From: Bacteroidota bacterium
GTDB lineage: Bacteria > Bacteroidota > Bacteroidia > Palsa-948
Direction of reading: 5' to 3'
Assembly (NCBI GenBank): GCA_016213405.1
Contig: JACRAM010000011.1
Coordinates: forward strand, 1-45,691
DNA length: 45,691 nt
Shown here: piece by piece, positions 1,494-35,818 of the stretch
Layout: each line of letters starts with the position of its first letter
Numbering within the stretch: position 1 is the first letter of the stretch
The notes under the pieces: generated by a model
Databases searched by the model: none
Told to the model about the DNA's origin: nothing
Seen by the model: only the letters and a program-made list of their open reading frames with translations
Made by a program: the position numbers and the translations under genes

Positions 1494-4400
1494 TTGACTC
1501 CTCATTACGCAAATAACTTATCGTCTGATTTTCTACTCAAAAAACTGGGGAGTTATTTTTTTTTACTTCTTACTTCTTACTTCTTACTTCTTACTTCTGC
1601 TTCGGCTCAAAACGCCAACTTTTCCGCTTCGCCTGTTACCGGCTGCGCCCCGTTGCAGGTGTACTTCACTGACCTTTCTACCGGTAATCCAACAGCATGG
1701 AACTGGAATTTCGGCAATAGCGTTACTTCTACTTTTCAAAATCCTACCGCCTTTTATTTTAATCCCGGAGTTTATACCGTAACACTGACTGTTACCGGAG
1801 CCAATACCGACACAGAAATTAAAACCAATTACATTGTTGTTTACGACAAGCCGCAAGCCAATTTCACGATGAGTACTGATACCGCTTGCGTAGGTCAAGT
1901 AGTAACGTTCACTGATGCAAGTGTGATTGCAACCAATCCCAATGGCGCTCCCATCGGAAGCTGGATATGGGATTTTGGCGATGGCAATACACAGGCAGCA
2001 ACTTCTTCTCCTGTAACCCATGCTTATTCTCTTCCCGGAAACTATCAGGTGAATGTAATTGTTACCGATGTGAACGGATGCGGTGGCGGCTCTATGGTTC
2101 ATAACATTGTGATTGTGCCATCTCCTACTCCCGCGTTCACTGCCGATACTTTATTTGCCTGCACTCCTCCGCTCACCGTTACATTCACAAACAATTCTAT
2201 TTCCAGCGGGCAAACTACTTACACATGGAATTTTGGTGACGGAAATACATCAACAGTGCCAAACCTAAATCCTACAGTACACACTTACACCACCTCAGGG
2301 TCATTTAACGTAACGCTCATCATCAATCAGAGCGGGTGCATTGATTCTCTGCTGATACCAAGCTATATTATCATTCAAAACATTACGGCAAGTTTTGTGG
2401 CAACGCCTACTGTGGTTTGTTCCGGACAATCCATATCATTCAACAATACATCTGCTCCTGCTGCAACAAGTGCAAGCTGGACTTTTGGCGATGGAAACTC
2501 TTCCACAACCATCAGCCCCGCCAACACCTACAACACAGCCGGAACTTATACGGTCACTCTTATTGCTGGCGAGAATGGATGCTTTGACACTACCACCGGA
2601 ACTGTTCTCGTTAATCAAACACCTGTTGCAAGTTTCACTGCCGACACCATGGTTGCCTGCAATGTTCCGTTCACTGTAACTTTTACCAGTACAGGATCGG
2701 GAGGAACAAATTATTCGTGGAACTTCGGAGACGGTGGAACTTCTGCTCTGCAAAATCCTGTTCACACCTATACGGCTTCGGGAGTTTATTCCGTTACGCT
2801 CACCGTTACAAACTCAAGCGGTCCTTGTGTAACTACCATCGTGATGCCGAACTATATTACTATTTCTCCCCCAATAGCATCCTTCGTTCACGCGCCCGAC
2901 AGCGGATGCGTTCCGCTCACAGTAAATTTTCTGAGCACGAGTACAAGTTTAATTGATCCGATTGCCACTTACAGCTGGAGTTTTGGCGATGGAAGTAATT
3001 CCACTACCGCTGCTACGGGGATTTCTCATACATACACTGCCACCGGTATTTACACTGTAACGCTCATCATTCAAACCGCAAACGGATGCTCTGATACCAT
3101 TGTTTGTCCAGGTTGCATACATGTAGGAACTCCTCCCTTTGCCAATTTTGGAATTGTAGAGGACACCGTTTGCTACGGATTGCCGGTAAATTTTCTTGAT
3201 TCATCCACCGGAAATGTAACCGGCTGGTACTGGAGTTTTGGCGATGGGGGCTCAAGCACTCAGCAAAATCCGACCTACACATATGGCGATACCGGAACCT
3301 ATCAGGTTTATCTCATCGCTTACAACAACGGATGCGCGGACACTTCGGTTATTAAAAACGTAGTGATACTTCCGCCCAAAGCAGTTTTCACTTATTCGCT
3401 TAGCTGCACCAATTATTATATTGTTCAGTTTTCCGATGCATCAGAAGGAGCTGATTCATTGTTCTGGGATTTCGGTGACGGCTCGCAGGATTCATCCAAC
3501 ATTCTCAATCCTGTTCATACGTATCCTGTTCGAGGTCCGTTCACGGTTACGCTCACCGCGTATAATTATTCCACTGGCTGTTTCAATTCAGCTTCTGCCT
3601 CATTCACCATTGCGGAACCGATAGCGAGTTACACGGTAAATCCGGATGGATGCTATCCGTTCACCGCCAACTTCACCAGCACATCGCAGGATGCAAATAC
3701 CTATTGGTGGAACTTTGGCGACCCTTCAACAATTCTTGACACTTCGCTCATTTCAAATCCTTCTTACACGTATAACAATCCTGCCGCCTACACCGTCACC
3801 TTCATCATCACCGATGTGAACGGATGCAAAGACACGCTGCAGGATACCGTGAAATCACTGGGACCCCTGCCCTACTTTTTTGCCGACACGCTCACAGGTT
3901 GCCGCCCGCTTCCGGTCACTTTCATTGATACTTCTATTTCTGATTCCGTGCTCGTGCAATGGATATGGGATTTCGGTGACGGCACAATTGATACTACAAA
4001 CAATGATTCCATCATTCACATTTATACTACTCCGGGCAATTATGCTGTAACCATGACAGTAAAAGACACAAACGGGTGCATGAAAATAATCACCATCAAC
4101 AATTACATTCAGCCCACTTTCCCCTATCCTGCTTTCACAGTGGATACCTTTGCCTGCAAAGGCGATTTGCTCACCTATACTTATACAGGAACCGCTGTGG
4201 TACCCAATACTTATCTATGGGATTTTGGTGATGCCAATACTTCCACATTACAAAATCCCACGCACGCTTATACGAATGATGGCTTATACATTGTCTCGCT
4301 CACCGTAACTGACATTAACGGATGCGACAGCACTCTCACCGATACGGTTCGCATTCTCAAACCCACTGCCAACTTCAGCTGGGCGATTGATACCATGTTA

Positions 4401-5408
4401 TGCAATAATCTGGTAATTGATTTCACAGATTTATCCACCGGGTTTGTAAATGCATGGTCATGGAATTTCGGCAACGGAGGAACATCCACCGGGCAGAATC
4501 CTTCTGCCATTTATTCTTCGGGAGGAATTTACAGCGTTACGCTGATCGTCACCAATGCAGGTGGCTGCATAGACACCATTGTGATGGACAGTATTATCAA
4601 TGTGCCGTTTCCTACCGGAAGTTTTTCTCTTACACCTACATCAGGATGCAATCCGCTCACCGTATGTTTTAACTCCATCAGCATTAACACCATTAATTAT
4701 TTCTGGGATTTTGGAGATGGGGGAACAGCCAGCATTCAGAATCCCTGCCACTTATATACGAATGCAGGACAATGGATTCCGCATCTTATACTTGAAGATA
4801 CTTTGGCAGACGGCTCACCATGTCAAACGGTTGTGTACCCACCCGATACTGTATTAGTAACAAACATCATTAACGTTTCTCTCAGCGGTCCTTCTGTTAT
4901 TACCGTTCCTGCCGACAGCATCATTGCTGTTACTGCCACCTACAGCGGAGGTGTTCCTCCTTATACATATTACTGGACACCGGCAACAGGATTAAACTGC
5001 GACACCTGCACCAGCGTTTTGATCATCGGAACCGGAGACACAATTGTGTACACTTTTATCATTTATGATTCATCGGGCTGCATTGGTAAGGATTCCATTT
5101 TTATTTTATCCGAGCCCTGCTTGCAGGAAAAATTAATTCCGAACGTGTTCACTCCTAATGGCGATGGATATAACGATATCTTTTACATTCCGGGAGTTTG
5201 TCCGGGCGATAAATATTCCCTTCAGATTTATGACCGGTGGGGCGTGCTCCTGTTCACAACCACCCTGCGCAACAACGGATGGGATGGCAGAACCAACGCG
5301 GGCATTCAGGCGAAAGACGGCACTTATTATTATGTGGTGAGCATGCATGTTAAACAGCCAACTGAAGAAGACAGAATTTACAAGGGATTTGTGGAGTTGA
5401 TAAGGTAA
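1494..5408 (+). CDS. Giant secreted PKD-repeat protein with T9SS type B (CHU_C) C-terminal domain
   Basis: A 1304-residue cell-surface or secreted protein, probably an adhesin or matrix protein. Residues about 15-38 form a hydrophobic signal peptide ending ASAQ. About a dozen PKD-type domains follow, each with the SWNFGDG(N/G)xSTxQNPxHxY pattern and a YxVTLTVT strand, for example WNFGNS, WDFGDGNTQ and WSFGDGGSS. The last 90 residues (from about 1215) carry IPNVFTPNGDGYNDIF, YDRWG and WDGR, typical of the gliding-motility CHU_C domain exported and anchored by the type IX system. No ATG is available before residue 127, so the TTG at 1494 is used. The signal peptide is encoded by a run of nine T and a five-fold heptamer, which could change the frame by slippage. 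The ligand is unknown. Confidence 0.88.
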   Translation: MTPHYANNLSSDFLLKKLGSYFFLLLTSYFLLLTSASAQNANFSASPVTGCAPLQVYFTDLSTGNPTAWNWNFGNSVTSTFQNPTAFYFNPGVYTVTLTVTGANTDTEIKTNYIVVYDKPQANFTMSTDTACVGQVVTFTDASVIATNPNGAPIGSWIWDFGDGNTQAATSSPVTHAYSLPGNYQVNVIVTDVNGCGGGSMVHNIVIVPSPTPAFTADTLFACTPPLTVTFTNNSISSGQTTYTWNFGDGNTSTVPNLNPTVHTYTTSGSFNVTLIINQSGCIDSLLIPSYIIIQNITASFVATPTVVCSGQSISFNNTSAPAATSASWTFGDGNSSTTISPANTYNTAGTYTVTLIAGENGCFDTTTGTVLVNQTPVASFTADTMVACNVPFTVTFTSTGSGGTNYSWNFGDGGTSALQNPVHTYTASGVYSVTLTVTNSSGPCVTTIVMPNYITISPPIASFVHAPDSGCVPLTVNFLSTSTSLIDPIATYSWSFGDGSNSTTAATGISHTYTATGIYTVTLIIQTANGCSDTIVCPGCIHVGTPPFANFGIVEDTVCYGLPVNFLDSSTGNVTGWYWSFGDGGSSTQQNPTYTYGDTGTYQVYLIAYNNGCADTSVIKNVVILPPKAVFTYSLSCTNYYIVQFSDASEGADSLFWDFGDGSQDSSNILNPVHTYPVRGPFTVTLTAYNYSTGCFNSASASFTIAEPIASYTVNPDGCYPFTANFTSTSQDANTYWWNFGDPSTILDTSLISNPSYTYNNPAAYTVTFIITDVNGCKDTLQDTVKSLGPLPYFFADTLTGCRPLPVTFIDTSISDSVLVQWIWDFGDGTIDTTNNDSIIHIYTTPGNYAVTMTVKDTNGCMKIITINNYIQPTFPYPAFTVDTFACKGDLLTYTYTGTAVVPNTYLWDFGDANTSTLQNPTHAYTNDGLYIVSLTVTDINGCDSTLTDTVRILKPTANFSWAIDTMLCNNLVIDFTDLSTGFVNAWSWNFGNGGTSTGQNPSAIYSSGGIYSVTLIVTNAGGCIDTIVMDSIINVPFPTGSFSLTPTSGCNPLTVCFNSISINTINYFWDFGDGGTASIQNPCHLYTNAGQWIPHLILEDTLADGSPCQTVVYPPDTVLVTNIINVSLSGPSVITVPADSIIAVTATYSGGVPPYTYYWTPATGLNCDTCTSVLIIGTGDTIVYTFIIYDSSGCIGKDSIFILSEPCLQEKLIPNVFTPNGDGYNDIFYIPGVCPGDKYSLQIYDRWGVLLFTTTLRNNGWDGRTNAGIQAKDGTYYYVVSMHVKQPTEEDRIYKGFVELIR
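1556..1597 (+). repeat. T9 run plus (TTACTTC)x5 heptamer array inside a signal-peptide coding region
   Basis: Nine T residues (1556-1564) run into five perfect copies of TTACTTC (1563-1597). Seven is not a multiple of three, so gain or loss of a unit shifts the frame of the 1304-residue protein. The same period and copy number recur at many other sites in the window. Confidence 0.9.
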
Positions 5409-5642
5409 TTTTTTTGAATGTACCCTTTTTGAGATAAAGTGTGTCTTTGCATTAATTGGAATTACTGACTTCCTCGCGCATTAATAATTTAATTTTGTCT
5501 TGTCTTTTTGAAACCTTTCCAAACTTTCTCACGTTAGAAGCAACAATATCTTTCACCCATGAATCCGCTCCCAATCATCTGCCTTTCTTCCGCTCATTTA
5601 TTTCTTTTGCATTCAACCACTAATCCATTATAAACAACTATC
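5409..5642. other. Intergenic region between two surface-protein genes
   Basis: No gene is seen in these 234 bp. TAATTTTG at 5490-5497 could be a distant -7 element for the next gene, but it is about 145 bp before its start. No clear terminator hairpin follows the upstream gene. Confidence 0.4.
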
Positions 5643-8691: not shown

Positions 8692-9017
8692 AACACAGGA
8701 GCAAAATGGTTCAACACAGGAGCAAAATGGTTCGACATAGGAGCAAAATGGTCTGACAAAGGAACAAAATGGTCTGACACAGGAACAAAATGGTCTGACA
8801 AAGGAACAAGATGGTCTGACAAAGGAACAAAATGGTCTGACACAGGAGCAAAATGGTCTGACAAAGGAGCAAAATGGTCTGACAAAGGAACAAAATGGTC
8901 TGACAAAGGAGCAAAATGGTCTGACAAAGGAGCAAAATGGTCTGACAAAGGAACAAAATGGTCTGACACAGAAGCAAAATGGTCTGACAAAGGAACAAAA
9001 TGGTCTGACACAGGAGC
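8692..9017. repeat. 21-bp minisatellite, about 15.5 units
   Basis: Fifteen full units and one partial unit follow the pattern GACA(A/C)AGGA(G/A)CAAAATGGTCT. Units differ mainly at two positions (A/C and G/A). The left-hand units read AACACAGG and TTC instead of GACAAAGG and TCT, as expected for ageing at an array edge. On the minus strand two frames stay open, one giving repeated SDHF(V/A)P(L/V). Confidence 0.92.
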
Positions 9018-12367: not shown

Positions 12368-13651
12368 TTAGAGTACAAGTTTATTATAAAAATTTAACAG
12401 ACGCTTCGTATTATCCTTTAATGATAGTTTTTTCTGGGCTAAGATTACATTTTCAGCAAGTATTGTATAATCATCTTGAAAAAGAATTTTTCGCAAATCG
12501 AGCAAGTCTTGCTTGTCAATCAAAATACCTGATTTATATCGCTTTACTATCCACGACTGATAGACAATGTTCTCCGATATAATAACAGGTATTCCCGCTT
12601 CAATAAAATTAAAAAGCTTCAATGTTGTACAGTATTTGTATTTGTCATACGATTGTTTATGCAATTCTTTATTGACAAATCCAGTATGAAAACCAAAATG
12701 ATACTTCGATAATTCCTCAGCCAGTTTATCCTGCGCCACAGGTTCATGAAAATGAAAAAAGGAATTCTGCTTTGCAATTTGCTCGTACTCTTCATAATCA
12801 GCCCGTATATTTGAGGGGCTGGGATAAATATGAAAATGGATTTCTTGCTTTGAGAGAATGTTTATGATTTCATGGAACTGTATGTTGCCGTATTGTTTTG
12901 GATTGCGGTGAGAGCCCGCCACGCCTCCGGCATAGACCAGAGACCCCTCTCCATCTCTCCCCCAAGGGGAGAGGGAAGAAACCCCTTCCCTTCGGGAAGG
13001 AAGGGATGGGCTCTTCTGAAACACATCGTCATCGCAGTAAAGCGGGAAGAAAATGGTCTTGGGTTTTTTCTTTATGCCGTATTTTCTGAACGCCACATTG
13101 GGCTCGAGCGAATGAGCAACAAGTCCATCGGCTTTCTCCAAACATTCTCTTTCATGCGGCAGTTCTTTTTTCAGCCAGCCGAGCGCGGGATTCAAGCCGT
13201 AATAAATGGAATAAACATCCTGCATATCTAAAACAAACGGAACTTTCAGCGTTTGCCTTGCGATGTTGGGATAATAACTCTTGGGAGCAAAAGCGTGCAT
13301 GAGGGAAACTTGGGGAAGTTGTTTCAGAATCCGTTTCAGATGAAATGCGTTGCGGAAAAGAAACACGGCATCAAACTCATTGTTGCTGAACTTTTCAAAA
13401 TAACCGCGCTGGCTGCATACAAGAATGGTTGAATATTCTCCGCTTCGCTTCACCCACTTGGCTATTCTCGGAATCCGTGCAGGCAGTTGTTCTCCGAGAT
13501 AGACAATAACTTTCTTTTCGCTGCGTTTCAGCTTGCCGGTGCCTGTAACAGGAACATTCAGCGCGTATAAAATGAAATCAAATACTGAACTAAACTTTTC
13601 GTACAAAAACCATTTCAGTTTGACAAAAAATATTTTCGCTGATGCGTTCAT
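12368..13651 (-). CDS. Glycosyltransferase (GT4-like, GT-B fold), with an in-frame palindromic element insert
   Basis: A 427-residue protein resembling family 4-type glycosyltransferases for surface polysaccharide. Visible features are an N-terminal half with VIVYLGEQLPAR, SLMHAFAPKSYYPNIAR and VPFVLDMQDVYSIYYG, and a C-terminal half with SLVYAGGVAGSHRNPKQYGN and LKLFNFIEAGIPVIISEN. The latter is the usual nucleotide-sugar site with its acidic residue (FIEAG). The ATG at 13651 is preferred over a TTG at 13660. Residues about 214-237 come from a bipartite palindromic repeat (12941-13012, 72 bp = 24 codons) placed between the two halves just before the C-terminal domain, so it likely forms a loop. 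It is divergent from the flippase and precedes the acetyltransferase. Donor and acceptor are unknown. Confidence 0.8.
   Translation of the reverse strand: MNASAKIFFVKLKWFLYEKFSSVFDFILYALNVPVTGTGKLKRSEKKVIVYLGEQLPARIPRIAKWVKRSGEYSTILVCSQRGYFEKFSNNEFDAVFLFRNAFHLKRILKQLPQVSLMHAFAPKSYYPNIARQTLKVPFVLDMQDVYSIYYGLNPALGWLKKELPHERECLEKADGLVAHSLEPNVAFRKYGIKKKPKTIFFPLYCDDDVFQKSPSLPSRREGVSSLSPWGRDGEGSLVYAGGVAGSHRNPKQYGNIQFHEIINILSKQEIHFHIYPSPSNIRADYEEYEQIAKQNSFFHFHEPVAQDKLAEELSKYHFGFHTGFVNKELHKQSYDKYKYCTTLKLFNFIEAGIPVIISENIVYQSWIVKRYKSGILIDKQDLLDLRKILFQDDYTILAENVILAQKKLSLKDNTKRLLNFYNKLVL
12941..13012. repeat. Bipartite palindromic element, in frame inside the glycosyltransferase
   Basis: Hairpin 1 is CTCTCCCC/GGGGAGAG near 12955-12973. 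Hairpin 2 is CCTTCCC-TTC-GGGAAGG at 12984-13000. The element ends in GGATGGGCT at 13012, like the copy at 42879-42966. Its length of 72 bp keeps the reading frame. Confidence 0.8.
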
Positions 13652-13696
13652 TGCCTGCAAAGGTCAAAGTTTTTAAGATATGAGCGTTAAAAAAAT

Positions 13697-13731
13697 AATC
13701 TGTAATCTGTAATCTGTAATCTGTAATCTCG
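13697..13731 (+). repeat. Heptamer array (AATCTGT)x4 + AATCTCG before the flippase
   Basis: Five 7-bp units end 12 nt before the ATG at 13744, so the array would lie in the leader or promoter region of the flippase gene. Confidence 0.88.
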
Positions 13732-13743: not shown

Positions 13744-15243
13744 ATGGGCATCGTTCAGCGCGACAGCATACGCATCATGGTCATCTCTTATCTGGGAGCT
13801 GCCATCGGTTATCTGAACAAGATCCTGCTCTTCACCAACTTTCTTACGGCAGAACAGGTAGGTCTCTCCAATATTATCATCAGTATTGCAGCCGTGTACG
13901 CTCAGTTTTCAGGATTAGGAATGACAGGTGTTACCATAAAATTCTTTCCATATTTCAAGGACAAGGAAAAACATCATCACGGATTTTTATTCTGGACATC
14001 CCTCCTTTCCTTATTCGGCTTCCTGCTGCTGACCATTATCTTTTTGCTGTTTAAATCTCCCATCATAAATTATTATTCTGAAAAATCCCCTTTGCTCGTT
14101 GAGTATTCGTTTTACGTGATTCCGCTTGCGCTTGCCACTGTTTATTACAACCTGCTGGAAGTTTTCCTGCGCTCGCTGATGAAAACGGTGGTATTCTCGC
14201 TCGTCAACGAAATTGTTTTACGCCTGATGATCTCCGCCAGCATTTTGCTTTTCGCATTTAAGCTTGTTTCTTTTCACGAATTTGTCATCATTTATGTAGG
14301 AGTGAATTGTTCCGCCACGCTCATCCTGCTGGTGTACATGGCTTACCTGAAACAGCTTTTATTCAAACCCGAATGGAGCAGCACCACCAAACGTTTTTTC
14401 AAAATTGTTCTCCATTACGGTTCGTTTGCCATCGTTGGCAACATGAGTTACATTCTGATGAATAACATTGACGCGCTGATGGTAGCTGCCATGATCGGGT
14501 TGAAGGATACGGGAGTTTACACCACCGTGTTTTTTATAGCAACGGTCATGCTAATTCCCTACCGCTCGCTGGCAAGAGTGGCGAGTCCGCTGGTGGCGCA
14601 GTTCTGGAAAAACCGCGAGATGAAAAAAATGCACGACCTCTACAAAAAAGTTACGCTGATGAGTTTGATTACCGGATGTTTTATTTTCCTTGGATTGTGG
14701 GTGAACATTGATAATATTTTTCATTTCATTCCGGATGAATACGCATCGGGCAAATATGTTTTTCTTTTTCTCGGCATCGGGCGGTTGTTCGACATGGCAA
14801 CGGGCATCAACGGAATCATCCTTGTCACTTCAAAAAAATACAGATACGATCTGCTCTTCACCATTTTGCTGATTGGCGTAATGATTGCGCTGAACCTTGC
14901 CTTTATTCCAACATACGGCATTGAAGGCGCCTCGTTCGCTACCATGCTTTCCATTATCACGCTCAACACGCTTCGCATTATTTACATCTGGAGCGTGTTT
15001 GGCATGCAGCCCTTTGACTTTAAAAGTGTGTGGGTGATTCTTATCGGGGTTTTCACGCTCGGAGTGATTTATTTCATCCCTCCTATCCTGAATGTTTATG
15101 CCGACATGATTATCCGCTCGCTTATTTGCCTTGTGCTTTACGCTGCGCCTGTGTTATGGCTGAAACTTTCTGAAGAAGTGAATGAGAATGCAATAAAAAT
15201 TCTGAAGGCAGCCCACCTTTATCCTCCCGAAGGGAGGAAATAA
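13744..15243 (+). CDS. Polysaccharide/lipid-linked oligosaccharide flippase (Wzx-like, MOP superfamily)
   Basis: A 499-residue inner-membrane protein with about 14 hydrophobic segments, starting MGIVQRDSIRIMVISYLGAA. The N-terminus with the segment AEQVGLSNIIISIAAVYAQF is characteristic of Wzx-type exporters, which move undecaprenyl-linked sugars across the membrane. Later hydrophobic helices include IGNMSYILMNNIDALMVAAM-type and LPTYGIEGASFATMLS-type segments, also usual for the family. It is divergent from a glycosyltransferase-acetyltransferase pair, which supports a surface-glycan role. A heptamer array sits 12 nt upstream of the start. The last residues (YPPEGRK) resemble peptides encoded by the palindromic repeats, so the C-terminal tail may be repeat-derived. 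The substrate is unknown. Confidence 0.85.
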   Translation: MGIVQRDSIRIMVISYLGAAIGYLNKILLFTNFLTAEQVGLSNIIISIAAVYAQFSGLGMTGVTIKFFPYFKDKEKHHHGFLFWTSLLSLFGFLLLTIIFLLFKSPIINYYSEKSPLLVEYSFYVIPLALATVYYNLLEVFLRSLMKTVVFSLVNEIVLRLMISASILLFAFKLVSFHEFVIIYVGVNCSATLILLVYMAYLKQLLFKPEWSSTTKRFFKIVLHYGSFAIVGNMSYILMNNIDALMVAAMIGLKDTGVYTTVFFIATVMLIPYRSLARVASPLVAQFWKNREMKKMHDLYKKVTLMSLITGCFIFLGLWVNIDNIFHFIPDEYASGKYVFLFLGIGRLFDMATGINGIILVTSKKYRYDLLFTILLIGVMIALNLAFIPTYGIEGASFATMLSIITLNTLRIIYIWSVFGMQPFDFKSVWVILIGVFTLGVIYFIPPILNVYADMIIRSLICLVLYAAPVLWLKLSEEVNENAIKILKAAHLYPPEGRK

Positions 15244-15466: not shown

Positions 15467-16162
15467 TCAATCTGTGAATTTATACCCCACTCCCCTCACC
15501 GAAAAAAAATGTTTCGGCTCTCGCGGGTTTTTTTCAAAGTACTTGCGGAAACTCACAATATAATTATCAATCGTTCGGGTGGAAGGATAGACATCATATT
15601 CCCATATGGTTCGTAAAATATCTTCGCGCGACACCACTTCATTCTTCCGTTCAATCAGCAGTTTCAGCAGTTGAATTTCCCGCTTGGAAATAGTCTGTTT
15701 TGTTCCGTCTCTTCCGATAATATCAAAAGTCAGGTAATTGATTTCGCATTTTCCGAATTTATAATTCTGATCGGAGATCCGGGATTCGGGATTTTGATTT
15801 TTTCTTTTCACAAGTTTGCTTACTCTCAGCAAAAGTTCTTCCAGGTTGAACGGCTTTGCCAGATAATCATCAGCTCCCAGTTTTAATCCGTGTATCCGCT
15901 CATCGCTTGCGCCTTTTGCAGTGAGAAAAATTACGGGCACTTCTGTATTCTCCAACCGGATTTTCTGACAAAGCGTATAGCCGTCCATTTCGGGAAGCAT
16001 TACATCCAGCACAATCAGATCAAAATGAGCTGAACGAAATGTTTCATAAGCAACTTTTCCATCACGGGCATCGGTAACATTATATCCTTCCATCTCCAGA
16101 TTCAAATGGATGGTGTTTCGTAGGTTTTCTTCGTCCTCAACTAATAATATTCTGTGTGCCAT
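15467..16162 (-). CDS. OmpR/PhoB-family two-component response regulator
   Basis: A 231-residue cytoplasmic transcription regulator. The receiver domain (1-117) has the acidic pair E9/D10, phospho-acceptor D53 in LIVLDVMLPEMDG, the Thr of FLTAKG and the Lys of YLAKPFNLEELL. The C-terminal winged helix (about 135-231) contains SKREIQLLKLLIERKNEVV, TRTIDNYIVSFRKYF and RGVGYKF. The linker (about residues 123-134) is encoded by a degenerate heptamer array (15769-15796). No sensor kinase is nearby; yraN lies 2 bp upstream on the same strand, so the two are likely one operon. The target genes are unknown. Confidence 0.93.
   Translation of the reverse strand: MAHRILLVEDEENLRNTIHLNLEMEGYNVTDARDGKVAYETFRSAHFDLIVLDVMLPEMDGYTLCQKIRLENTEVPVIFLTAKGASDERIHGLKLGADDYLAKPFNLEELLLRVSKLVKRKNQNPESRISDQNYKFGKCEINYLTFDIIGRDGTKQTISKREIQLLKLLIERKNEVVSREDILRTIWEYDVYPSTRTIDNYIVSFRKYFEKNPREPKHFFSVRGVGYKFTD
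15769..15803. repeat. Degenerate heptamer array inside the response-regulator linker
   Basis: On the plus strand the units are GATCGGA, GATCCGG, GATTCGG, GATTTTG and ATTTTTT. The array encodes part of the interdomain linker (around NPESRISDQN) without a stop codon. Confidence 0.65.
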
Positions 16163-16536: not shown

Positions 16537-16571
16537 TTACGAGTTACGAATGACGAATGACGAATATTACA
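16537..16571 (-). repeat. Heptamer array upstream of yraN
   Basis: On the plus strand the units are TTACGAG, TTACGAA, TGACGAA, TGACGAA and a degenerate TATTACA. It begins 9 nt from the yraN start codon. Confidence 0.8.
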
Positions 16572-16596: not shown

Positions 16597-16631
16597 TGCC
16601 ATCTGCCATCTTCCCTTTTACATCTTACATG
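16597..16631 (+). repeat. Degenerate heptamer array between yraN and the DUF4412 gene
   Basis: The units are TGCCATC, TGCCATC, TTCCCTT, TTACATC and TTACATG. It is a second array in the same 204-bp gap. Confidence 0.65.
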
Positions 16632-16697
16632 TTTTGGTATGATTGTTGAATTCTCCATGATATTGTTCTCAAAAAAACATTACTTTAGCAACCTCTC

Positions 16698-16715
16698 CCG
16701 AAGGGATTCCTTCGG
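16698..16715. repeat. CCGAAGG-GATT-CCTTCGG hairpin repeat
   Basis: A 7-bp stem with loop GATT lies 16 nt before the ATG of the DUF4412 gene. The same hairpin occurs twice at 28662-28703. Confidence 0.75.
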
Positions 16716-18264: not shown

Positions 18265-18278
18265 TCACGAAAATAAAA

Positions 18279-18313
18279 CAGTTTACAGTTTACAGTTTAC
18301 AGTTTACAGTTTT
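18279..18313 (+). repeat. Heptamer array (CAGTTTA)x4 + CAGTTTT in the metG leader
   Basis: Five units end 11 nt before the GTG start of metG, between a TATCTTTG element and the start codon. Confidence 0.9.
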
Positions 18314-18324: not shown

Positions 18325-20382
18325 GTGAATTACAAACGCCATACAGTTACAGCTGCTTTGCCTTACGCGAATGGTCCCGTGCACATTGGCCATTTGGCAG
18401 GATGCTATTTGCCTGCTGATATATATGTACGCTATCTCCGTTCAAAAGGCGAGGATGTGAAATTTATCTGCGGTTCGGATGAACACGGAGTTCCTATTAC
18501 TATTAAAGCAAAAAACGAAGGAATTACTCCTCAGCAAGTGGTGGATAAATACCACAAGATGATGGGCAATTCATTTAAGGAATTCGGAATTTCATTTGAT
18601 ATTTATTCGCGCACTTCTAACAAAGTTCATCATGAAACAGCTTCGGAGTTTTTTAAAACACTTTACGATAAAAAGATTTTCACGGAAGAAATAACGGAAC
18701 AGTATTTTGATGAAAAGGCAAATCAGTTTCTTGCTGACAGATATATTATAGGAACTTGCCCTAAATGCGGAAGCGAAAATGCCTACGGAGACCAGTGCGA
18801 AAAATGCGGCACCTCGTTGAGTCCGACTGAATTGATAAATCCAAAATCAACTTTGTCTGGTGAAAAACCTGTGCTGCGAAAAACCAAGAATTGGTTTCTT
18901 CCTCTTGATAAAATGCAATCTCAGATTGAAAAATACATTGAATCGCATAAAGACTGGAAAGTAAATGTGTACGGACAATGCAAAAGCTGGCTTGACCAAA
19001 AATTACAGTCCAGAGCAATGACACGTGATCTGGATTGGGGAGTGAAAGTCCCATTGAAAGATGCAGAAGGAAAAGTTTTGTATGTATGGTTTGATGCGCC
19101 TATCGGGTATATTTCTGCCACAAAAGAACTTTTGGGTAACGACTGGAAAAAATACTGGCAAGACAAAGAAACAAGATTGGTTCACTTCATCGGCAAAGAC
19201 AATATTGTTTTCCATTGCATAATTTTTCCTGCCATGCTGATGGCGCACGGAGAATATATTTTGCCTGACAATGTTCCGGCAAATGAATTTCTGAATCTGG
19301 AAGGAGATAAAATTTCCACTTCGCGTAACTGGGCGGTGTGGCTGCATGAGTATTTGAAAGACTTCCCGAACAAACAGGATGTTCTTCGCTACGTACTCAC
19401 GGCAAATGCGCCCGAAACAAAAGACAATGATTTTACCTGGAAGGATTTTCAGCAGAAGAACAACAGCGAATTAGTTGCCATTCTCGGAAATTTTGTGAAC
19501 CGCACGATGGTGCTCACGCAAAAATATTTTGAGAATAAAGTTCCACTTGCCGAAGAGTTTACAAAAGGTGATGTTTTATTGATGGAAGAGATAAGTAAGT
19601 TTCCTAAAAAGATTTCTGCCGCGCTGGATGCTTTTAAATTTCGAGAAGCACTAACTGAGATGATGAACCTAGCCCGGTCGGGAAATAAATATCTTGCAGA
19701 GAACGAGCCGTGGAAATTATCTGACCAAAAAAGAATCGGAAGTATTTTGAATATCTGTCTGCAGATTTGCGCGAACCTTGCTGTGGCAGTTGAACCGTTT
19801 TTGCCAAATACTTCTGTGAACTTATCTTCCCTTCTCAATATTGGAAAATTAAACTGGCGCGATGCGGGTAGAACAGATATTTTAAAATCAGGACATCAAC
19901 TTGGACAGGCAAAACTTTTGTTTGATAAAATTGAAGATGAAACAATAGAAAAACAAATGGAGAAACTAAAAAAAAGCCCACCCCCAACCCCTCCCATTAG
20001 GAGGGGAGACAAATCTCAAGTCCTCCCTAATGGGGAGGATTTAGGAGGGGCTGTAACTATTGACGACTTTAAGAAACTCGATATAAGAGTTGGAAGAATT
20101 ATTGAAGTGCTGGATTTTCCGGAAGCGAAAAAACCTGCCTACAAACTGAAAATAGATTTCGGAAAAGAGATTGGCACAAAAAACTCCAGTGCACAAATCA
20201 CAAAGAACTATTCCAAAGAGCAGTTGAAAGGAAAATTAATTCTTGCTGTAGTGAACTTCCCTCCACGTAAAGTTGGGCCTTTTGTTTCAGAAGTACTCAC
20301 TCTTGGTGTTCCTGACAAAAACAATGAAACGATTCTCGTTGAGCCGGGGAAAGATGTGGAGATTGGGGGAAAACTTTCCTGA
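18325..20382 (+). CDS. metG: Methionyl-tRNA synthetase fused to a CsaA-like tRNA-binding domain
   Basis: A 685-residue class I synthetase charging tRNA-Met. It starts at GTG ([17 protein letters not shown]); the HIGH motif is PVHIGHLAG and the second signature is KISTSR, usual for this phylum. A zinc knuckle CPKCGS...CEKCG lies near residues 148-164. The helical anticodon domain ends near residue 549. Residues about 551-576 are encoded by a bipartite palindromic repeat. The last about 105 residues ([63 protein letters not shown]) match the stand-alone tRNA-binding chaperone CsaA more closely than the usual MetG C-terminal domain. The stop codon abuts that of the convergent TPR gene. Confidence 0.93.
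19975..20052. repeat. Full bipartite palindromic element, in frame at the MetG-CsaA joint
   Basis: The element runs from AGCCC to GGGGCT. Arms are CCCCTCC-CATTA-GGAGGGG and CCTCCC-TAAT-GGGGAGG, separated by ACAAATCTCAAG. Its 78 bp are 26 codons and contain no stop. Read on the minus strand it aligns with 42879-42966 through AGCCC(C/A)TCCTAAATCC and the shared GGACTT after hairpin 1. Confidence 0.88.
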
Positions 20383-22398
20383 TTATTTTTTCAAGGAAGG
20401 ATCCATCTGAAACGCCTTTTGAAAATTCTCATCTGCCTTTTGTTTGTCTCCTTTGCTCTGCCAGCTCAAAGCAAGATTCATAAATATCCGCGCATCTTCT
20501 TTTTTAAGTTCAGGTTTTAATTTAATAGCAGTCTCAAACTCATTGATTGAATTGTCATAATCCTTCTTCATCGCATAACAGATACCAAGATTTTCGTGAT
20601 AGCCAGTATCATCGGGTTTGTTGGCGAGCGCTTCTTTCAGCAGGGGAATCGCCTTATCCACATCTCCTTTTAATTTTCCATAAACCAAACCCAGTGCGCC
20701 TTTCGCCATGTATTGCGCCATCGAATTATCTGGTTTGAGATCAATGGTTTTCTGCTGATATACAATGGCTGAATCCGGGTTTCCAAGTTTTTCCCAGATG
20801 AGACCGATGTTGTAATAGCAGTAATGGAAATATGGATTTATTTCCATCGCTCTTCTGAATTCCCTTTTCGCCTCTATGAAAAGTGAATCGCGCTTCGGAC
20901 CTTGCTCATCGTTAATATGGTCAGTGAACATTGTATTGGCATTGTAATAATGCGCATTGGCACTTCCTGTGCTGGTCTTTACATCGGTGGTGAAAAGAGT
21001 TTTGTTGTCCTTCCAGGCAGGATTTCTTGTTAAGGTTTTATAAGAATACGGAACGAGAATCAGTAAAAGTGGAATTGATAGTTTGGCATTTTTGTAAAAG
21101 TCTGTTCGTAATTCGTAATTCGTTGTATTCGTAATTCGTAGGAGAGCAGCGGCAAGCGCAAGACAAAATCCCAATGAAGAAATATAAGCGAAGCGTTCTC
21201 CCATAGTTGTTCCGATAAGGAAGAAAAGATTTGATACGATTGAGATAGTGATTAGGAAATATAAAATTGAAAAAGAGAAAACCAAAGATTCTGAATTCTG
21301 AATTCTATATTCCGGATTCTTTCTCGCCTTTATTTCTTTCATTAATATTTTTCCCGCATAAAAAAATAATCCTCCATAAATTAAAAGTGAAGCTAGTGCC
21401 TTCGGATTAGCTAAGCTCATGGCAGGAATCTGGTTGAACCCATAATCACTTGTTAGCGGATGAGGAAAGATAAGAAGCAAAAGATATTTCAGAAGTATCC
21501 AGCAGATGGTGGCAAATTTCTCCACAAACGGCAGAGCAGTCGGGAGGGCGGGAAAATTCAACTGAAGAAATGGATTGTCTGTAATGTCATTGCTTTCCCT
21601 GTCGCCAATCATTCCGACCAAAGAAGTTCTGATGGCTAAATAAATTCCTGCCGTGATGAAAAAGGGAATCGTAAACATTAAACTATGCTTGATATTTTTT
21701 CCGGCAAAGCAAAATAGCGTAAGAGGAATAACAGCGATAAATGTTATTCCGTTTTCCTTAGATAAAAGGGCGAGAAAATAACAAACACAAGCCCCACCTA
21801 TCCTCCGCCAAGGGGAGGGACTTTGCTTTAATGCTTTAAACAAAAGGATTAGTGCCAGACAAAGAAAAAGAAACGAAACTATTTCATCCATGCTTTTTAT
21901 ATTAGCGACAACTTCTGTATGAATCGGATGAGCGATGAAAAAAAGTGTGGCAATAAAAGCCAGTAAATGATTTCTTGGAAAAAATTCTTTGAGTGTCAGA
22001 AATAAAACTATTGCCGTGATTCCGTAAAGAAAAATGTTGATGAAGTGATAAGGATGCGCATTGTCACCAAAGAAATGATATTCCACAGCAAACATCACCA
22101 GCGTTAGTGGACGCCATCTCCCGCCTTCCAAATCAAGTGCGTTTCCGTAAATCCCATAGAATAAATCTTTAGTGGCGAGCGTTTTTATTCCATCAAAGCC
22201 CTGCTTGGTGTATTTATTTCCGGTGATGACCACTGAATCATCAAAAGCGAATTCGTGATTGAAGGTATTGATATATAGTCCGCAGGCGAAAAGAAAAAGA
22301 AAAATGTAAGCCCAGTGAAATGATGGTTGATGGTTAATGGTTAATGGTTGATGGCTCTTCTTAGATATATTTTTATTTTTCTTGCTCATTCGTGTCAA
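20383..22398 (-). CDS. Multi-pass membrane protein with C-terminal TPR repeats (TMTC/GT-C-like)
   Basis: A 671-residue membrane protein. After a basic N-terminus there are about 10 hydrophobic helices (residues about 28-470). The first loop has FAFDDSVVITGN and a later one has FFIAHPIHTEVVANI, the pattern seen in TMTC-type (DUF1736) GT-C glycosyltransferase-like proteins. Residues about 490-671 hold at least four tetratricopeptide repeats (AKREFRRAMEINPYF, PDSAIVYQQKTIDLKPDN, AIPLLKEALANKPDD, SINEFETAIKLKPE). A protein O-glycosyltransferase role is possible but unproven. The gene contains four repeat tracts: heptamer arrays at 22321-22355, 21288-21322 and 21104-21140, and a half palindromic element at 21789-21823. 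An in-frame ATG at 22389 (MSKK) is an alternative start. Confidence 0.8.
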   Translation of the reverse strand: MTRMSKKNKNISKKSHQPLTINHQPSFHWAYIFLFLFACGLYINTFNHEFAFDDSVVITGNKYTKQGFDGIKTLATKDLFYGIYGNALDLEGGRWRPLTLVMFAVEYHFFGDNAHPYHFINIFLYGITAIVLFLTLKEFFPRNHLLAFIATLFFIAHPIHTEVVANIKSMDEIVSFLFLCLALILLFKALKQSPSPWRRIGGACVCYFLALLSKENGITFIAVIPLTLFCFAGKNIKHSLMFTIPFFITAGIYLAIRTSLVGMIGDRESNDITDNPFLQLNFPALPTALPFVEKFATICWILLKYLLLLIFPHPLTSDYGFNQIPAMSLANPKALASLLIYGGLFFYAGKILMKEIKARKNPEYRIQNSESLVFSFSILYFLITISIVSNLFFLIGTTMGERFAYISSLGFCLALAAALLRITNTTNYELRTDFYKNAKLSIPLLLILVPYSYKTLTRNPAWKDNKTLFTTDVKTSTGSANAHYYNANTMFTDHINDEQGPKRDSLFIEAKREFRRAMEINPYFHYCYYNIGLIWEKLGNPDSAIVYQQKTIDLKPDNSMAQYMAKGALGLVYGKLKGDVDKAIPLLKEALANKPDDTGYHENLGICYAMKKDYDNSINEFETAIKLKPELKKEDARIFMNLALSWQSKGDKQKADENFQKAFQMDPSLKK
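21104..21140. repeat. Heptamer array inside the membrane-TPR gene (ATTCGTA type)
   Basis: The units are GTTCGTA, ATTCGTA, ATTCGTT, then a 2-nt break, ATTCGTA and ATTCGTA. It encodes the NTTNYELRTD loop between hydrophobic helices. Confidence 0.8.
21288..21322. repeat. Heptamer array inside the membrane-TPR gene (ATTCTGA type)
   Basis: The units are ATTCTGA, ATTCTGA, ATTCTAT, ATTCCGG and ATTCTTT. It encodes NPEYRIQNSES, similar to the linker encoded by the array at 15769-15803. Confidence 0.8.
21789..21823. repeat. Half palindromic element inside the membrane-TPR gene
   Basis: AAGCCCCACC is followed by TCCTCCGCC-AA-GGGGAGGGACTT, one arm of the bipartite family. It encodes QSPSPWRRIGG between two helices. 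Confidence 0.65.
22321..22355. repeat. Heptamer array near the 5' end of the membrane-TPR gene
   Basis: The units are TGATGGT, TGATGGT, TAATGGT, TAATGGT and TGATGGC. It encodes residues about 15-26 (SHQPLTINHQPS), directly before the first membrane helix. Confidence 0.88.
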
Positions 22399-22407: not shown

Positions 22408-23178
22408 TTAGTGGCTAAATATTTCTTCTGCATTTTTTGTTGTTATTTCCGCAACTTCTTCAATTGAAATTCCTTTTATCTCCGCAACCTTCTGCGCCAC
22501 AAAAGTAATGTAAGAACTTTCATTGCGCTTTCCTCGGTGTGGAACAGGTGTTAAATAAGGAGAATCTGTTTCAAGGACGATGTGTTTCAAATCAATCTGC
22601 TTCAGCACTTCAGGAAGTTCTGATTTCGTGTAGGTAACCGCTCCACCTATTCCCATTTTAAATCCATCGAGAGAAATTACTTTATTCGCCTGCTCAATAG
22701 TTCCTGTAAAGCAATGAAAAATTCCTTTCAAGGAATTATCATGCTTTGATTTCACCATCTCAAATAAATCATCAAAACATTCTCGCTGGTGAATTATTAT
22801 TGGCAAAGAATATTTTTTTGCTAAATCAATCTGCCTTGCGAAAGCATCTTTCTGCTGATTTATAAAAGTCTTATCCCAGTGATAATCCATTCCTATTTCT
22901 CCGATGGCTCTGAATTTTCTTTTGCTTAACCAATGTTCGACAACCGTTAACTCATCTGTATATTTTTCATTCACTGAGCAAGGATGCAAACCCATCATGG
23001 AAAAACAATTTTCAGGAAACTCTGCTTCAAGTTTCAGCATGGAGGAGATGTACGAACTGTCAATATTCGGCAGGAACATTTTTTTTACTCCTGCAGAAAT
23101 TGCGCGCTTGACGACTTCTGTTCTGTCAGAATCAAATTCTTCTGCAAAGAGATGTGTGTGGGTATCTATTAAGTTCAA
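22408..23178 (-). CDS. tatD: TatD family metal-dependent hydrolase / DNase
   Basis: A 256-residue TIM-barrel hydrolase. The metal site is clear: IDTHTHLF near the N-terminus, GEIGMDYHW (Glu and following Tyr-His), IIIHQRE, IFHCFTGT and LETDSPYLTP. Family members act as 3'-5' nucleases or related hydrolases in the cytoplasm. Starts further out exist (ATG 23220, and an even longer frame), but TatD proteins normally begin two to four residues before the IDTHTHL motif. The TTG at 23178 fits this, and a TATCTTTA element lies between it and the ATG at 23220. The upstream stretch is a heptamer array, so residues from the longer start would be repeat-derived. Confidence 0.88.
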   Translation of the reverse strand: MNLIDTHTHLFAEEFDSDRTEVVKRAISAGVKKMFLPNIDSSYISSMLKLEAEFPENCFSMMGLHPCSVNEKYTDELTVVEHWLSKRKFRAIGEIGMDYHWDKTFINQQKDAFARQIDLAKKYSLPIIIHQRECFDDLFEMVKSKHDNSLKGIFHCFTGTIEQANKVISLDGFKMGIGGAVTYTKSELPEVLKQIDLKHIVLETDSPYLTPVPHRGKRNESSYITFVAQKVAEIKGISIEEVAEITTKNAEEIFSH

Positions 23179-23207
23179 AAGTTGAAAGTTAAAAATCAAA
23201 AGTAAAG
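23173..23207 (-). repeat. Degenerate heptamer array at the tatD start
   Basis: On the plus strand the units are GTTCAAA, AGTTGAA, AGTTAAA, AATCAAA and AGTAAAG. It overlaps the proposed TTG start at 23178. Confidence 0.65.
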
Positions 23208-27093: not shown

Positions 27094-27981
27094 TTGAAAA
27101 TATTTACCACGATAACAGAAACAAAAGATTGGCTCATTAATGTCAGAAATGAAGCTGAATCCATTGGATTTGTGCCTACCATGGGCGCATTACACAGAGG
27201 ACACATTTCGCTGTTAGAAAGAGCAAAAAGAGAGAATGATATAGCAGTTGCCAGCATCTTTGTAAACCCCCTTCAGTTCAACGATAAGAAAGACCTTCAA
27301 AAATACCCACGCACTCTTGAAGAGGATATTGAAAAACTTATACAATCCCGTTGTGATATGCTTTTTTCGCCAAGTGTGGAAGAGATGTATCCGCCCCCCC
27401 TCTCTAACTCTCCCCAAAGGGGAGAGGACATGGAGGTTATGTTAAATAAATTATTCCCCCCTTCGGGGGGATTCAGGGGGGGTGAAGTAATGGAAGGCGC
27501 TCATCGTCCCGGACATTTTCAGGGGGTTTGCCTGGTAGTGAAAAAACTGTTTGATATTATTGAACCAGCCAAAGCCTATTTTGGAGAAAAAGATTTTCAG
27601 CAGTTGGCAATAATCAAGCACATGGTGAAAATACTGCAGATGCCTGTAGTAATCATTCCCTGCCCCACCGTGCGTGAAGCAGAAGGGCTGGCGATGAGTT
27701 CGCGCAACGCTCTCCTGAACTCAGATGAAAGAAAAAACACTTCTCATATTTATAAAACTCTGCAAGGAGCAAGGGATAAGGAAAGAGGAACAATACAGGA
27801 ACTCAAAAAATGGGTTTCATACAAAATCAACGAGAACCCTTTTCTTCAATTGGAATATTTTGAAATTGTAAATTCAGAAACGCTCATCCCTATTCAAGAT
27901 TGGAAAGAAAGTAAAAACCTGCAAGCGTGTATTGCCGTAAAGGTTGGAACTGTGAGATTGATAGATAATATTGCTTTCTGA
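27094..27981 (+). CDS. panC: Pantothenate synthetase, with an in-frame palindromic repeat insert
   Basis: The enzyme condenses pantoate and beta-alanine with ATP in the last step of pantothenate synthesis. Clear motifs are FVPTMGALHRGHISLL (residues 27-42, HIGH-like), SIFVNPLQFN, HRPGHFQGV, AYFGEKDFQQL and EGLAMSSRN. The start is TTG at 27094 (MKIFTTITE); no ATG is suitable. Length 295 is slightly more than the usual about 280. Residues about 100-130 are encoded by a bipartite palindromic element lying between MYP and the conserved HRPGHF motif. The insertion site is a surface loop in known PanC enzymes, so activity may be kept. panD is 3.4 kb away and on the same strand. Confidence 0.94.
   Translation: MKIFTTITETKDWLINVRNEAESIGFVPTMGALHRGHISLLERAKRENDIAVASIFVNPLQFNDKKDLQKYPRTLEEDIEKLIQSRCDMLFSPSVEEMYPPPLSNSPQRGEDMEVMLNKLFPPSGGFRGGEVMEGAHRPGHFQGVCLVVKKLFDIIEPAKAYFGEKDFQQLAIIKHMVKILQMPVVIIPCPTVREAEGLAMSSRNALLNSDERKNTSHIYKTLQGARDKERGTIQELKKWVSYKINENPFLQLEYFEIVNSETLIPIQDWKESKNLQACIAVKVGTVRLIDNIAF
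27393..27482. repeat. Bipartite palindromic element, in frame inside panC
   Basis: Hairpin 1 is CTCTCCCC-AAA-GGGGAGAG (around 27408-27426). Hairpin 2 is CCCCCC-TTC-GGGGGG (around 27456-27470), followed by ATTCAGGGGGGG. The spacer codes MEVMLNKLF. The 90 bp hold a whole number of codons. Ends are approximate. Confidence 0.8.
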
Positions 27982-28426: not shown

Positions 28427-28636
28427 CATCATAATAAACTTTTTCGTTTGCATTATATTGTACGAACCTGTGATAATAATCCTTTTCGTTTGCCCTAACC
28501 TGAATGAAAGGATGATAACAATACTTTTCGTTTGCCTCAACCTGAATGAAAGGATGATAACAAAGCTTTTCGTTTATGCCAATCCGTACGAAGGGATGAT
28601 AACAAAGTATTTCGTTTACCTCAATCTGTTTCCCGG
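28427..28636. repeat. 42-bp minisatellite, five units
   Basis: Units start near 28427, 28470, 28511, 28553 and 28595, with pattern GATGATAACAA...TTTTCGTTTGCC and AACCTGAATGAA. The central copies are the most alike. The minus strand would read CYHPF(I/V)QV.ANEKY repeats, 14 residues each. Confidence 0.88.
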
Positions 28637-28639: not shown

Positions 28640-28715
28640 ACAAAAAACCCCGAACATTTTCCCGAAGGGATTCCTTCGGAACTTCCCGAAGGGATTCCTT
28701 CGGAACTGCTCAGGG
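28640..28715 (-). terminator. Terminator of the cupredoxin surface protein, built around two CCGAAGG hairpins
   Basis: On the minus strand CCCTGAGCA (28715-28707) pairs, with two G-U wobbles, with TGTTCGGGG (28656-28648) and is followed by TTTTTTGTTTT. The loop holds two copies of a CCGAAGG-type hairpin (28662-28679 and 28686-28703). The wobbles favour termination on the minus strand. Confidence 0.6.
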
Positions 28716-28726
28716 TTTTCTTTATC

Positions 28727-28750: not shown

Positions 28751-28751
28751 C

Positions 28752-31286: not shown

Positions 31287-31369
31287 TGTGTAAAAAAGGT
31301 TATGTAATTGTTAATTTTGATTTTTGGGAGCACGAAGGTAATATAAATATTCAGAACGAACACGCGAAA

Positions 31370-31377
31370 TATATTTG
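31370..31377 (+). promoter_or_regulatory. TAnnTTTG (-7) element for panD
   Basis: TATATTTG lies 28 nt before the panD ATG. No clear -33 TTTG is visible. Confidence 0.5.
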
Positions 31378-31405
31378 TTTAACTTCGCCCGCTTAATAGA
31401 TTATT

Positions 31406-31756
31406 ATGGAAATACAAATTTTAAAATCAAAAATTCACCGTGCACGGGTTACCGAAGCCGATTTGAATTATGTGGGCAGCATTACCATTGACGAAAACCT
31501 GATGGATGCAGGCAATCTCATCGAGAACGAACAAGTGCATGTGTTGAATTATAGGAACGGTGAGCGCATAATTACTTACGTAATAAAAGGCGCGCGCGGT
31601 TCTGGAATCATCTGCATGAACGGACCTGCTGCACTCAAGTTTGCAGTGGGCGATGATGTGATTGTTCTTTCTTATGCCACTATGAATTTTGAAAAGGCAA
31701 AAACCTTTAAGCCAAAACTTGTATATCCTGACAGCAGCACGAACAAAATCAAGTAA
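31406..31756 (+). CDS. panD: Aspartate 1-decarboxylase
   Basis: The enzyme makes beta-alanine from aspartate for pantothenate synthesis and is a self-processing pyruvoyl enzyme. The 116-residue length is normal. The cleavage site is Gly-Ser in YVGSITID (Ser25 becomes the pyruvoyl group). Other signatures are [25 protein letters not shown] and VIVLSYA. The ATG at 31406 fits the family start. Its stop codon overlaps the beginning of a 70-bp heptamer array that leads to the next gene on the same strand. Confidence 0.96.
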
Positions 31757-31822
31757 TCAGTAATCGGTGAACGGTAATCGGTGAATTACCAACTGATAAC
31801 CGTTAACTGATAACCGTTAACC
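31753..31822. repeat. Double heptamer array (ten units) between panD and the next gene
   Basis: First block: GTAATCA, GTAATCG, GTGAACG, GTAATCG, GTGAATT. Second block: ACCAACT, GATAACC, GTTAACT, GATAACC, GTTAACC. The second is roughly the reverse complement of the first, so the 70 bp can fold. It begins in the panD stop codon and ends 9 nt before the TTG start at 31832. Confidence 0.88.
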
Positions 31823-31831
31823 ATTACTATC

Positions 31832-33151: not shown

Positions 33152-33153
33152 GA

Positions 33154-35782: not shown

Positions 35783-35783
35783 G

Positions 35784-35818
35784 ATTTACGGATTACGAAT
35801 TAGTGCGAATGTACGAAT
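35784..35818 (-). repeat. Degenerate heptamer array at the DUF4153 gene start
   Basis: On the plus strand the units are ATTTACG, GATTACG, AATTAGT, GCGAATG and TACGAAT. It lies 1 nt from the ATG (35782) and between two divergent genes. Confidence 0.6.

What the first reader, a model, noticed from the sequence alone, without database searches (positions are those of the whole stretch)
1556..35818. A genome-wide-looking family of 35-bp heptamer arrays (five 7-bp units, each site a different unit)
At least twelve sites have a strict 7-bp period: 1563-1597, 13697-13731, 15769-15803, 16537-16571, 16597-16631, 18279-18313, 21104-21140, 21288-21322, 22321-22355, 23173-23207, 31753-31822 (ten units) and 35784-35818. 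Most have five units. The unit differs between sites (TTACTTC, AATCTGT, CAGTTTA, ATTCTGA, TGATGGT and others), so the period and length are conserved rather than the sequence. Heptanucleotide repeats (STRR) are known in cyanobacteria; I know of no described equivalent in Bacteroidota. A common mechanism that writes or maintains five heptamers is suggested.
Basis: seen in the sequence. Interest (0 to 1): 0.82.

Follow-up and report, generated by a model that had tools for sequence, protein, structure and literature searches.

The report
Five-unit heptamer arrays that drift
This uncultured Bacteroidota genome is dotted with short runs of up to about five copies of a seven-letter DNA word, and related species often keep such a run at the same spot and of similar length but spell it with a different word, which points to an unusual way of copying or maintaining DNA in seven-letter steps.

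Summary
The arrays are real. Among exact arrays of three or more copies period 7 dominates here and in four of five same-genus genomes sampled. Length is capped near five units: 75 of 76 imperfect arrays measure 24-40 nt, and no exact array in 1.19 Mb reaches six copies. At orthologous positions other species often carry an array of similar length with another unit: 16 of 26 loci with aligned flanks. Examples are the metG leader (18278-18312), a second leader, and a 66-bp stretch of waaA written in heptads in all seven genus genomes without net length change (one weakly). Units are most alike in the closest species pair, so they appear to drift together. The pattern fits birth by 7-nt misalignment, a cap near five copies, and homogenisation at nearly constant length where sequence is tolerated. 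Phase variation is not supported. The claim that Bacteroidota lack an equivalent is wrong: heptamer bias is described widely, including TAACTGA repeats in five Bacteroidetes. Verdict: a new, unusually length-limited variant of a known repeat class; molecular cause unknown.

The parts
1563..1598 (+). exact array TTACTTC x5.1 in the N-terminal hydrophobic core (signal peptide by eye) of a PKD/CHU_C (type IX secretion signal) protein, ORF 1494-5408
13696..13729 (+). exact array TAATCTG x4.9 ending 14 nt before the ATG of a Polysacc_synt-family gene (13744-15243)
   Evidence: no orthologous stretch found in five relatives
15769..15803 (-). imperfect array (20/28) between the two domains of a response regulator gene (15467-16162); the aligned gaps in five relatives have equal length and other sequence
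16537..16571 (-). imperfect array (21/28) of the TTACGAA type
16597..16631 (+). imperfect array (21/28) TGCCATC/TTACATC
18278..18312 (+). exact array ACAGTTT x5.0 in the metG leader, ending 12 nt before the GTG start (18325-20382); other units at the same place in G001, G003, G004, G002; only a weak array in a longer gap in G006
21104..21140 (-). imperfect TTCGTAA-type array inside a TPR protein gene (20383-22398)
21288..21322 (-). imperfect array (20/28) in the same gene; G001 has GAGAGTT-type and G006 AGATCTT-type units there
22321..22355 (-). array TGATGGT (25/28) near the N-terminus of the same gene; G006 has GATTGCG-type units at equal length; G001 has none and is 28 nt shorter
23173..23207 (-). 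weak imperfect array (18/28)
31753..31822 (.). two five-heptad halves in imperfect inverted orientation, intergenic; the G001 gap is 21 nt against 83

Best explanation
The arrays are heptanucleotide simple-sequence repeats made by a replication or repair process that mispairs in 7-nt register and is more active in this genus than in most Bacteroidota sampled. Arrays are born by adding a few units (inferred, with mixed evidence), are held at up to about five units (shown), and then drift: point mutations spread among the units while length and position change little (shown by orthologues; the enzymology is inferred, most simply out-of-register copying that returns to register). They persist where sequence matters little: just before start codons, in signal-peptide cores, and in fixed-length linkers or helices. 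No function specific to the arrays is needed.
For: Period 7 dominant with many units. Same place, other unit: 16 of 26 loci with aligned flanks have a strong array (score >=14) in more than one genome. Strong arrays in 5 of 6 genomes at the metG leader, 5 of 5 at a second leader, 5 of 6 at the L025 coding site; in waaA 7 of 7 genus genomes at score 11-27, G001 lowest. Random anchored sites: score >=16 in 63 of 2040 pairs. Length: 39 of 51 coding both-array pairs differ by 0 nt; of 38 other pairs 19 differ by <=2 nt (pairs counted from both sides). Units most alike in the closest pair. Unit variants in blocks or alternation, such as CCTGATA2-CCTTATT2 and AAATCTC/AAATCCC. At mismatches inside arrays, the species not used to define the array matches its own +/-7 neighbour in 67-69% against 44% outside. 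Locations.
Against: waaA arrays show no net insertion against array-free outgroups (66 bp in 31 of 34 rows). Counterparts without an array are shorter in 9, equal in 6 and longer in 4 of 19 coding pairs, and shorter in 9 and longer in 6 of 15 others, so birth by insertion is only partly borne out. Ordinary slippage predicts +/-7 variants and a long tail; few of either are seen (2 of 51 and 3 of 38 pairs differ by a nonzero multiple of 7). Unit distance is not monotonic: G000-G002 averages 1.8 at 74.2% identity, G000-G001 3.0 at 75.9%. Outside arrays no 7-nt templating is detectable. Intergenic length constancy rests on two loci, one of which also shows differences of 9-22 nt. In 10 of 26 loci only one genome has a strong array.
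Confidence: 0.5

Rival explanations
1. The arrays are functional cis-elements kept by selection: a 7-nt-spaced ladder of sites, or an unstructured leader, read by an RNA- or DNA-binding protein that cares about spacing rather than sequence.
For: The 12 leader arrays examined end 1-26 nt before a start codon (starts read by eye); position and length are often kept across species at about 72-80% nucleotide identity. MacGregor 2015 suggested a translational role for TAACTGA repeats just upstream of start codons.
Against: The same arrays lie inside genes and in signal peptides where a leader function cannot apply; no common consensus was seen among units; 10 of 26 loci have a strong array in one genome only.
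Confidence: 0.16
2. A dedicated writer lays down patches of about 35 nt of heptads in place, as in gap filling that stutters every 7 nt.
For: Narrow patch length; fixed-length overwriting in waaA; equal gap lengths with different units.
Against: Units most alike in the closest pair, which repeated fresh writing would erase; block and alternating variants suggest stepwise change; no writer gene was looked for.
Confidence: 0.15
3. Phase-variable contingency repeats: gain or loss of one unit switches the frame or promoter spacing of surface proteins.
For: Heptamers in neuO (5' coding) and hmw1A (promoter) do this (passages read); N-terminal cores of exported proteins are frequent sites.
Against: neuO ranges from 3 to 53 units and 65.6% of 64 genomes are OFF; here exact arrays stay below six. 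Where an N-terminal array has an orthologue scoring >=12 with clean anchors, gaps differ by 0, 3, 9 or 18 nt; differences of 18-19 at L309/L310 and of -2 and -17 against array-free gaps at L023 7618 are not all multiples of three but may include non-coding flank. Housekeeping genes (metG, waaA) carry arrays too.
Confidence: 0.07
4. The arrays are pieces of dispersed hairpin elements that spread through the genome.
For: 31753-31822 is an inverted pair; L020 and L021 share a bipartite CCAAATT element; TTACGAA-type sites recur; other palindromes are multi-copy.
Against: By eye the perfect arrays have site-specific units and no shared flanks; orthologous sites keep the array but not its sequence.
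Confidence: 0.07
5. Chance or assembly artefact.
For: The genome is a draft in 127 contigs.
Against: Shuffles give 0.08 clusters against 13; genomes tied to different public records agree on positions; the same assemblies hold 22 exact tandem runs of >=45 nt at periods 8-59 and none of >=42 nt at period 7.
Confidence: 0.02

Closest known systems
Heptanucleotide long simple-sequence repeats (Mrazek 2007, not seen; as cited in PMC4679880 and PMC4692102)
   Same: period 7 dominant, many units
   Different: here length is capped near five units, and orthologues often keep place and length while changing the unit
TAACTGA repeats of Beggiatoaceae, cyanobacteria and five Bacteroidetes (PMC4679880)
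   Same: heptamers close upstream of start codons, Bacteroidetes included
   Different: one fixed unit and up to 43 copies there; many units and no exact array of six copies in the sampled genus sequence here
G-rich GGGAATC heptamers of Xanthomonas and Nostoc (PMC4692102)
   Same: heptamer arrays, four units commonest; in two Xanthomonas most lie between the same genes with length and sequence variation, a precedent for place kept and sequence changed
   Different: one G-rich quadruplex-forming family of 2-26 units; not in coding helices at fixed length in the passages read
Phase-variable heptamers neuO and hmw1A (PMC13001214, PMC8262952)
   Same: heptamers in 5' coding sequence or promoter
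   Different: copy number highly variable and switching expression; not seen here
STRR of cyanobacteria
   Different: not compared here

Membership tests
Heptanucleotide simple-sequence repeats | tandem 7-nt units beyond chance | tested here: met
Heptanucleotide simple-sequence repeats | length variable by whole units (usual, not defining) | tested here: inconclusive
   between species 2 of 51 coding and 3 of 38 other both-array pairs differ by a nonzero multiple of 7; strain level not testable
TAACTGA repeat family | unit TAACTGA | tested here: not met
   no array among the units listed has that unit as the majority
Phase-variable contingency locus | repeat number changes switch frame or promoter | tested here: inconclusive
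   cleanly anchored N-terminal orthologue arrays differ by multiples of 3; variation within a population not testable
Cyanobacterial STRR | the published consensus heptamers | not tested
   consensus units were not retrieved
REP-like palindromic element | inverted arms | tested here: inconclusive
   met at 31753-31822; not examined array by array for the perfect ones

The most novel reading that the evidence does not exclude
A lineage-specific DNA transaction copies in strict 7-nt register over patches of about 35 nt and returns to register, so that it overwrites and homogenises sequence without changing length. Such length-neutral, sequence-blind concerted evolution of five-heptad patches would be a new kind of genome-shaping process, and its enzyme would explain why heptamers dominate bacterial repeats.
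Probability: 0.2. Interest if true: 0.85.

Novelty: new variant of a known kind. Interest (0 to 1): 0.6.

Why it matters
Why seven is a favoured repeat unit in bacteria has, in the papers seen, only a conjecture behind it (the length of DNA held by the polymerase). A genus with matched arrays across species, a cap near five units and units that change at nearly constant length makes the question testable: which polymerase or repair step has a 7-nt register, and why it stops near 35 nt. It also warns annotators that signal peptides and linkers in these genomes are partly repeat-written, so their residues say little about ancestry.

Tried and rejected
General 7-nt templating of point mutations: no excess of bases matching the +/-7 neighbour at 10,118 G001-G004 and 101,519 other mismatches outside arrays (mismatch/match ratio 0.97 and 1.00, in line with other shifts), so the process is confined to existing arrays. 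The 76-81% figure inside arrays is partly circular, since arrays were defined by period 7 in one of the two species; one search used only the other species and gave 67-69%. Bulk heptad structure of intergenic DNA: small (lag 7 at 0.296-0.313 against medians of 0.280-0.297). Chance and assembly limits: rejected. Phase variation: not supported. Fresh rewriting: not favoured. Start codons in my scripts are mechanical, so the classes (12 first 30 codons, 10 no ORF, 10 body, 9 before first ATG, of 41) are rough. Signal peptides were judged by eye, with no predictor. No structure prediction, RNA-family, phage or plasmid search was made, and no search for a responsible enzyme. G005 (78% complete) had no metG match and enters only waaA.

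Papers: PMC4679880, passages plus sections 3 and 12; PMC4692102, PMC13001214 and PMC8262952, passages; Mrazek 2007 not seen. I found no report of length-kept, unit-changing heptamers of many units in the listings, which show only a part of the hits; PMC4692102 comes closest.

Biases: 16 own-genome stretches (of 20) were chosen for TTACTTC hits and are left out of the unselected counts but are in the 850,297 bases. Most relatives' stretches were chosen for synteny with array loci, and loci because the query stretch held arrays; whether the orthologue had an array was not used for choosing. Of 119 arrays 70 lacked both flanks aligned within limits and were dropped; the 49 left are 26 loci counted from several genomes. 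Outgroup waaA rows are the best 26 of 107 outgroup genomes with a match (115 searched), so the lower-scoring ones were not read.
Full report
Setting. The window is contig C11 of a 3.65-Mb draft Bacteroidota genome in 127 contigs. The nearest named relatives by MetG are uncultured Bacteroidetes, 83-87% identical in the best segment. The searchable set holds six other genomes of the genus; family and order searches returned the same seven. Contig length and position tie G001 to PLUL01000053, G004 to JACRAL010000181 and G006 to JAHEYJ010000016.

Is it there? Three of the twelve sites are perfect arrays of three or more copies; the rest are weaker. By lag-7 matches over 35 nt, 11 of 12 reach at least 18 of 28; 35784-35818 does not. 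At 20 of 28 or more the window has 13 clusters against 0.08 in dinucleotide shuffles and none at periods 5, 6, 8, 9, 10 or 11. In 437,350 own-genome bases not chosen for repeats, exact arrays of three or more copies number 9 at period 7, at most 1 at any other period from 2 to 20, and 3 at period 21. In all stretches held, counts at period 7 against periods 5, 6 and 8-12 together are 34 to 5 in G000 (850,297 bases), 10 to 1 in G001 (195,700), 10 to 3 in G003 (155,587), 4 to 3 in G004 (170,390), 2 to 1 in G006 (101,010) and 0 to 1 in G002 (31,031). Like for like, imperfect arrays per 100 kb are 4.8 in unselected own sequence (21), 7.9 in the relatives' stretches (28; chosen around metG and synthetase-like hits), 2.5 in 323,052 outgroup bases (8) and 1.2 in 77 named Bacteroidota loci taken to lie outside the genus (8 in 689,434). 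The outgroups too have 16 at period 7 against 2 at periods 5, 6, 8 and 9. So the bias to seven is general and the density is raised, roughly two- to sevenfold.

Five units. In 1,192,355 bases (window, unselected own stretches, relatives' stretches) exact runs of three or more copies fall 6, 11, 7, 11, 5, 1 in half-unit bins up to 6, none longer; below three copies there are 225 and 33 runs, many of them expected by chance; 76 imperfect arrays span 24-40 nt, with one of 54. In the unselected own part alone exact arrays have 3.0-4.4 copies and imperfect ones 24-37 nt plus that of 54. The longest exact array listed in any genus stretch has 5.9 copies (L023); outside the genus one of 7.0 was seen (L110). 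The same assemblies hold 22 exact tandem runs of 45 nt or more at periods 8-59, so assembly is an unlikely cause of the cap.

Same place, other word. Upstream of metG the window has ACAGTTT x5.0; G001 has AGAATTC x4.9, G004 AGAATAA x4.7, G003 GTTAATC x3.9 exact, G002 an imperfect CAGATTG array, and G006 only a weak one in a longer gap. The aligned gap is 65 against 65 nt in G001 and 58 against 58 in G004, but 9 nt longer in G003, 22 in G002 and 72 in G006. A second leader has AACCATC, AAGTTAA, AAATTAA, AAAGTTT and AAGTTAA in G000, G001, G003, G004 and G006, with gap differences of 0 or 1 except about 202 nt for G006. In waaA (KDO transferase family) the stretch between the EFEQ and FFSPSGYE motifs is 66 bp in 31 of 34 rows; all seven genus genomes score 11-27 at lag 7, G001 lowest, with different units; 3 of 26 outgroup rows score 12, 24 and 25 and the other 23 score 1-7. 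A coding site in L025 is strong in 5 of 6 genomes (G001 scores 9), with all gap differences zero. Over 119 arrays, 49 had both flanks aligned in another species and 38 of these had at least one orthologue array of score 14 or more; the 49 are 26 loci, of which 16 have a strong array in more than one genome. Of 51 coding pairs with arrays on both sides 39 differ by 0 nt and 2 by a nonzero multiple of 7; of 38 other pairs 13 differ by 0, 19 by at most 2, and 3 by a nonzero multiple of 7 (pairs are counted from both sides). Random sites score 16 or more in 63 of 2040 anchored pairs.

Drift, not rewriting. Unit distance (best rotation, of 7) averages 1.22 for G001-G004 (9 directed pairs; 80.4% identity) and about 2.5 for the other 80 pairs (71.8-76.5% identity), against 3.46 for random units. 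Among those others there is no clean trend: G000-G002 averages 1.8 at 74.2%, G000-G003 3.0 at 76.5%. Variants occur in blocks or alternation. At mismatches inside arrays, the species not used to define the array matches its own base 7 nt away in 67% (102 cases) and 69% (1821) against 44% outside and 44-56% at other shifts inside. Outside arrays shift 7 is not special.

Birth and death. The G003 metG-internal array has no counterpart array: G000 and G001 are 24 nt shorter there, G004 and G006 longer by 36 and 51 nt. At 22321 G006 has an array of equal length and G001 none and 28 nt less. Over all pairs whose counterpart lacks an array, coding counterparts are shorter in 9, equal in 6 and longer in 4 of 19, others shorter in 9 and longer in 6 of 15. 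This fits birth by addition and decay in place at some loci but does not prove it, and waaA needs a compensating deletion or a length-neutral origin.

Where they sit. Seventeen N-terminal arrays that I picked and translated look like hydrophobic signal-peptide cores by eye, for example MkkiFFWLLASGFWLfvac and MqiryfsisFLLSSVFCLLSSVFSfsq. The window array at 1563 lies in such a core of a PKD/CHU_C protein. Twelve leader arrays end 1-26 nt before a start codon read by eye. Others lie in linkers or helices of fixed length (helix placement in waaA is inferred, no structure was made). What these sites seem to share is tolerance of sequence (inference).

What it is. I file it as a heptanucleotide simple-sequence repeat system in which whole-unit length variation between species was tested and rarely seen. 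Closest in print: TAACTGA repeats in Beggiatoaceae, cyanobacteria and five Bacteroidetes, with up to 43 copies (PMC4679880, sections and passages); GGGAATC repeats of Xanthomonas, which mostly lie between the same genes in two species with length and sequence variation (PMC4692102, passages); and the phase-variable heptamers of neuO and hmw1A (passages).

Limits. The genus genomes are drafts, and no two compared are closer than about 80% identity over the aligned stretches; intergenic length constancy rests mainly on two loci; no strain-level or experimental data were available; the enzyme is unknown.

Noticed in passing
19954-20055 (metG), 12943-13012 (ORF 12368-13660), panC-like ORF 27094-27981: Proline- and glycine-rich in-frame inserts that look like dispersed palindromic elements (SPPPTPP...DLGG type). 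The metG and 12943 ones match many places in relatives and, for metG, several in the own genome; the panC-like one was seen by eye only.
   Followed up: partly
16696-16715, 28660-28679, 28684-28703: The 20-mer TCCCGAAGGGATTCCTTCGG occurs three times exactly in the window (0 expected), twice as a 24-bp tandem at 28659-28707.
   Followed up: partly
8692-9017: Tandem 21/42/63-bp repeat of about 326 bp between two large ORFs.
   Followed up: no
16537-16571, 21104-21140 and orthologous gaps in G006 and G002: TTACGAA/TTCGTAA heptads recur at several sites and look hairpin-forming in the relatives by eye, possibly a separate dispersed family.
   Followed up: partly
L020:9097-9200 and L021:10288-10400: Two loci share a bipartite element: a CCAAATT array followed some tens of bases on by GGGACTT-type heptads in opposite sense (by eye).
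   Followed up: no
28471-28628: 42-bp tandem repeat, 3.8 copies.
   Followed up: no
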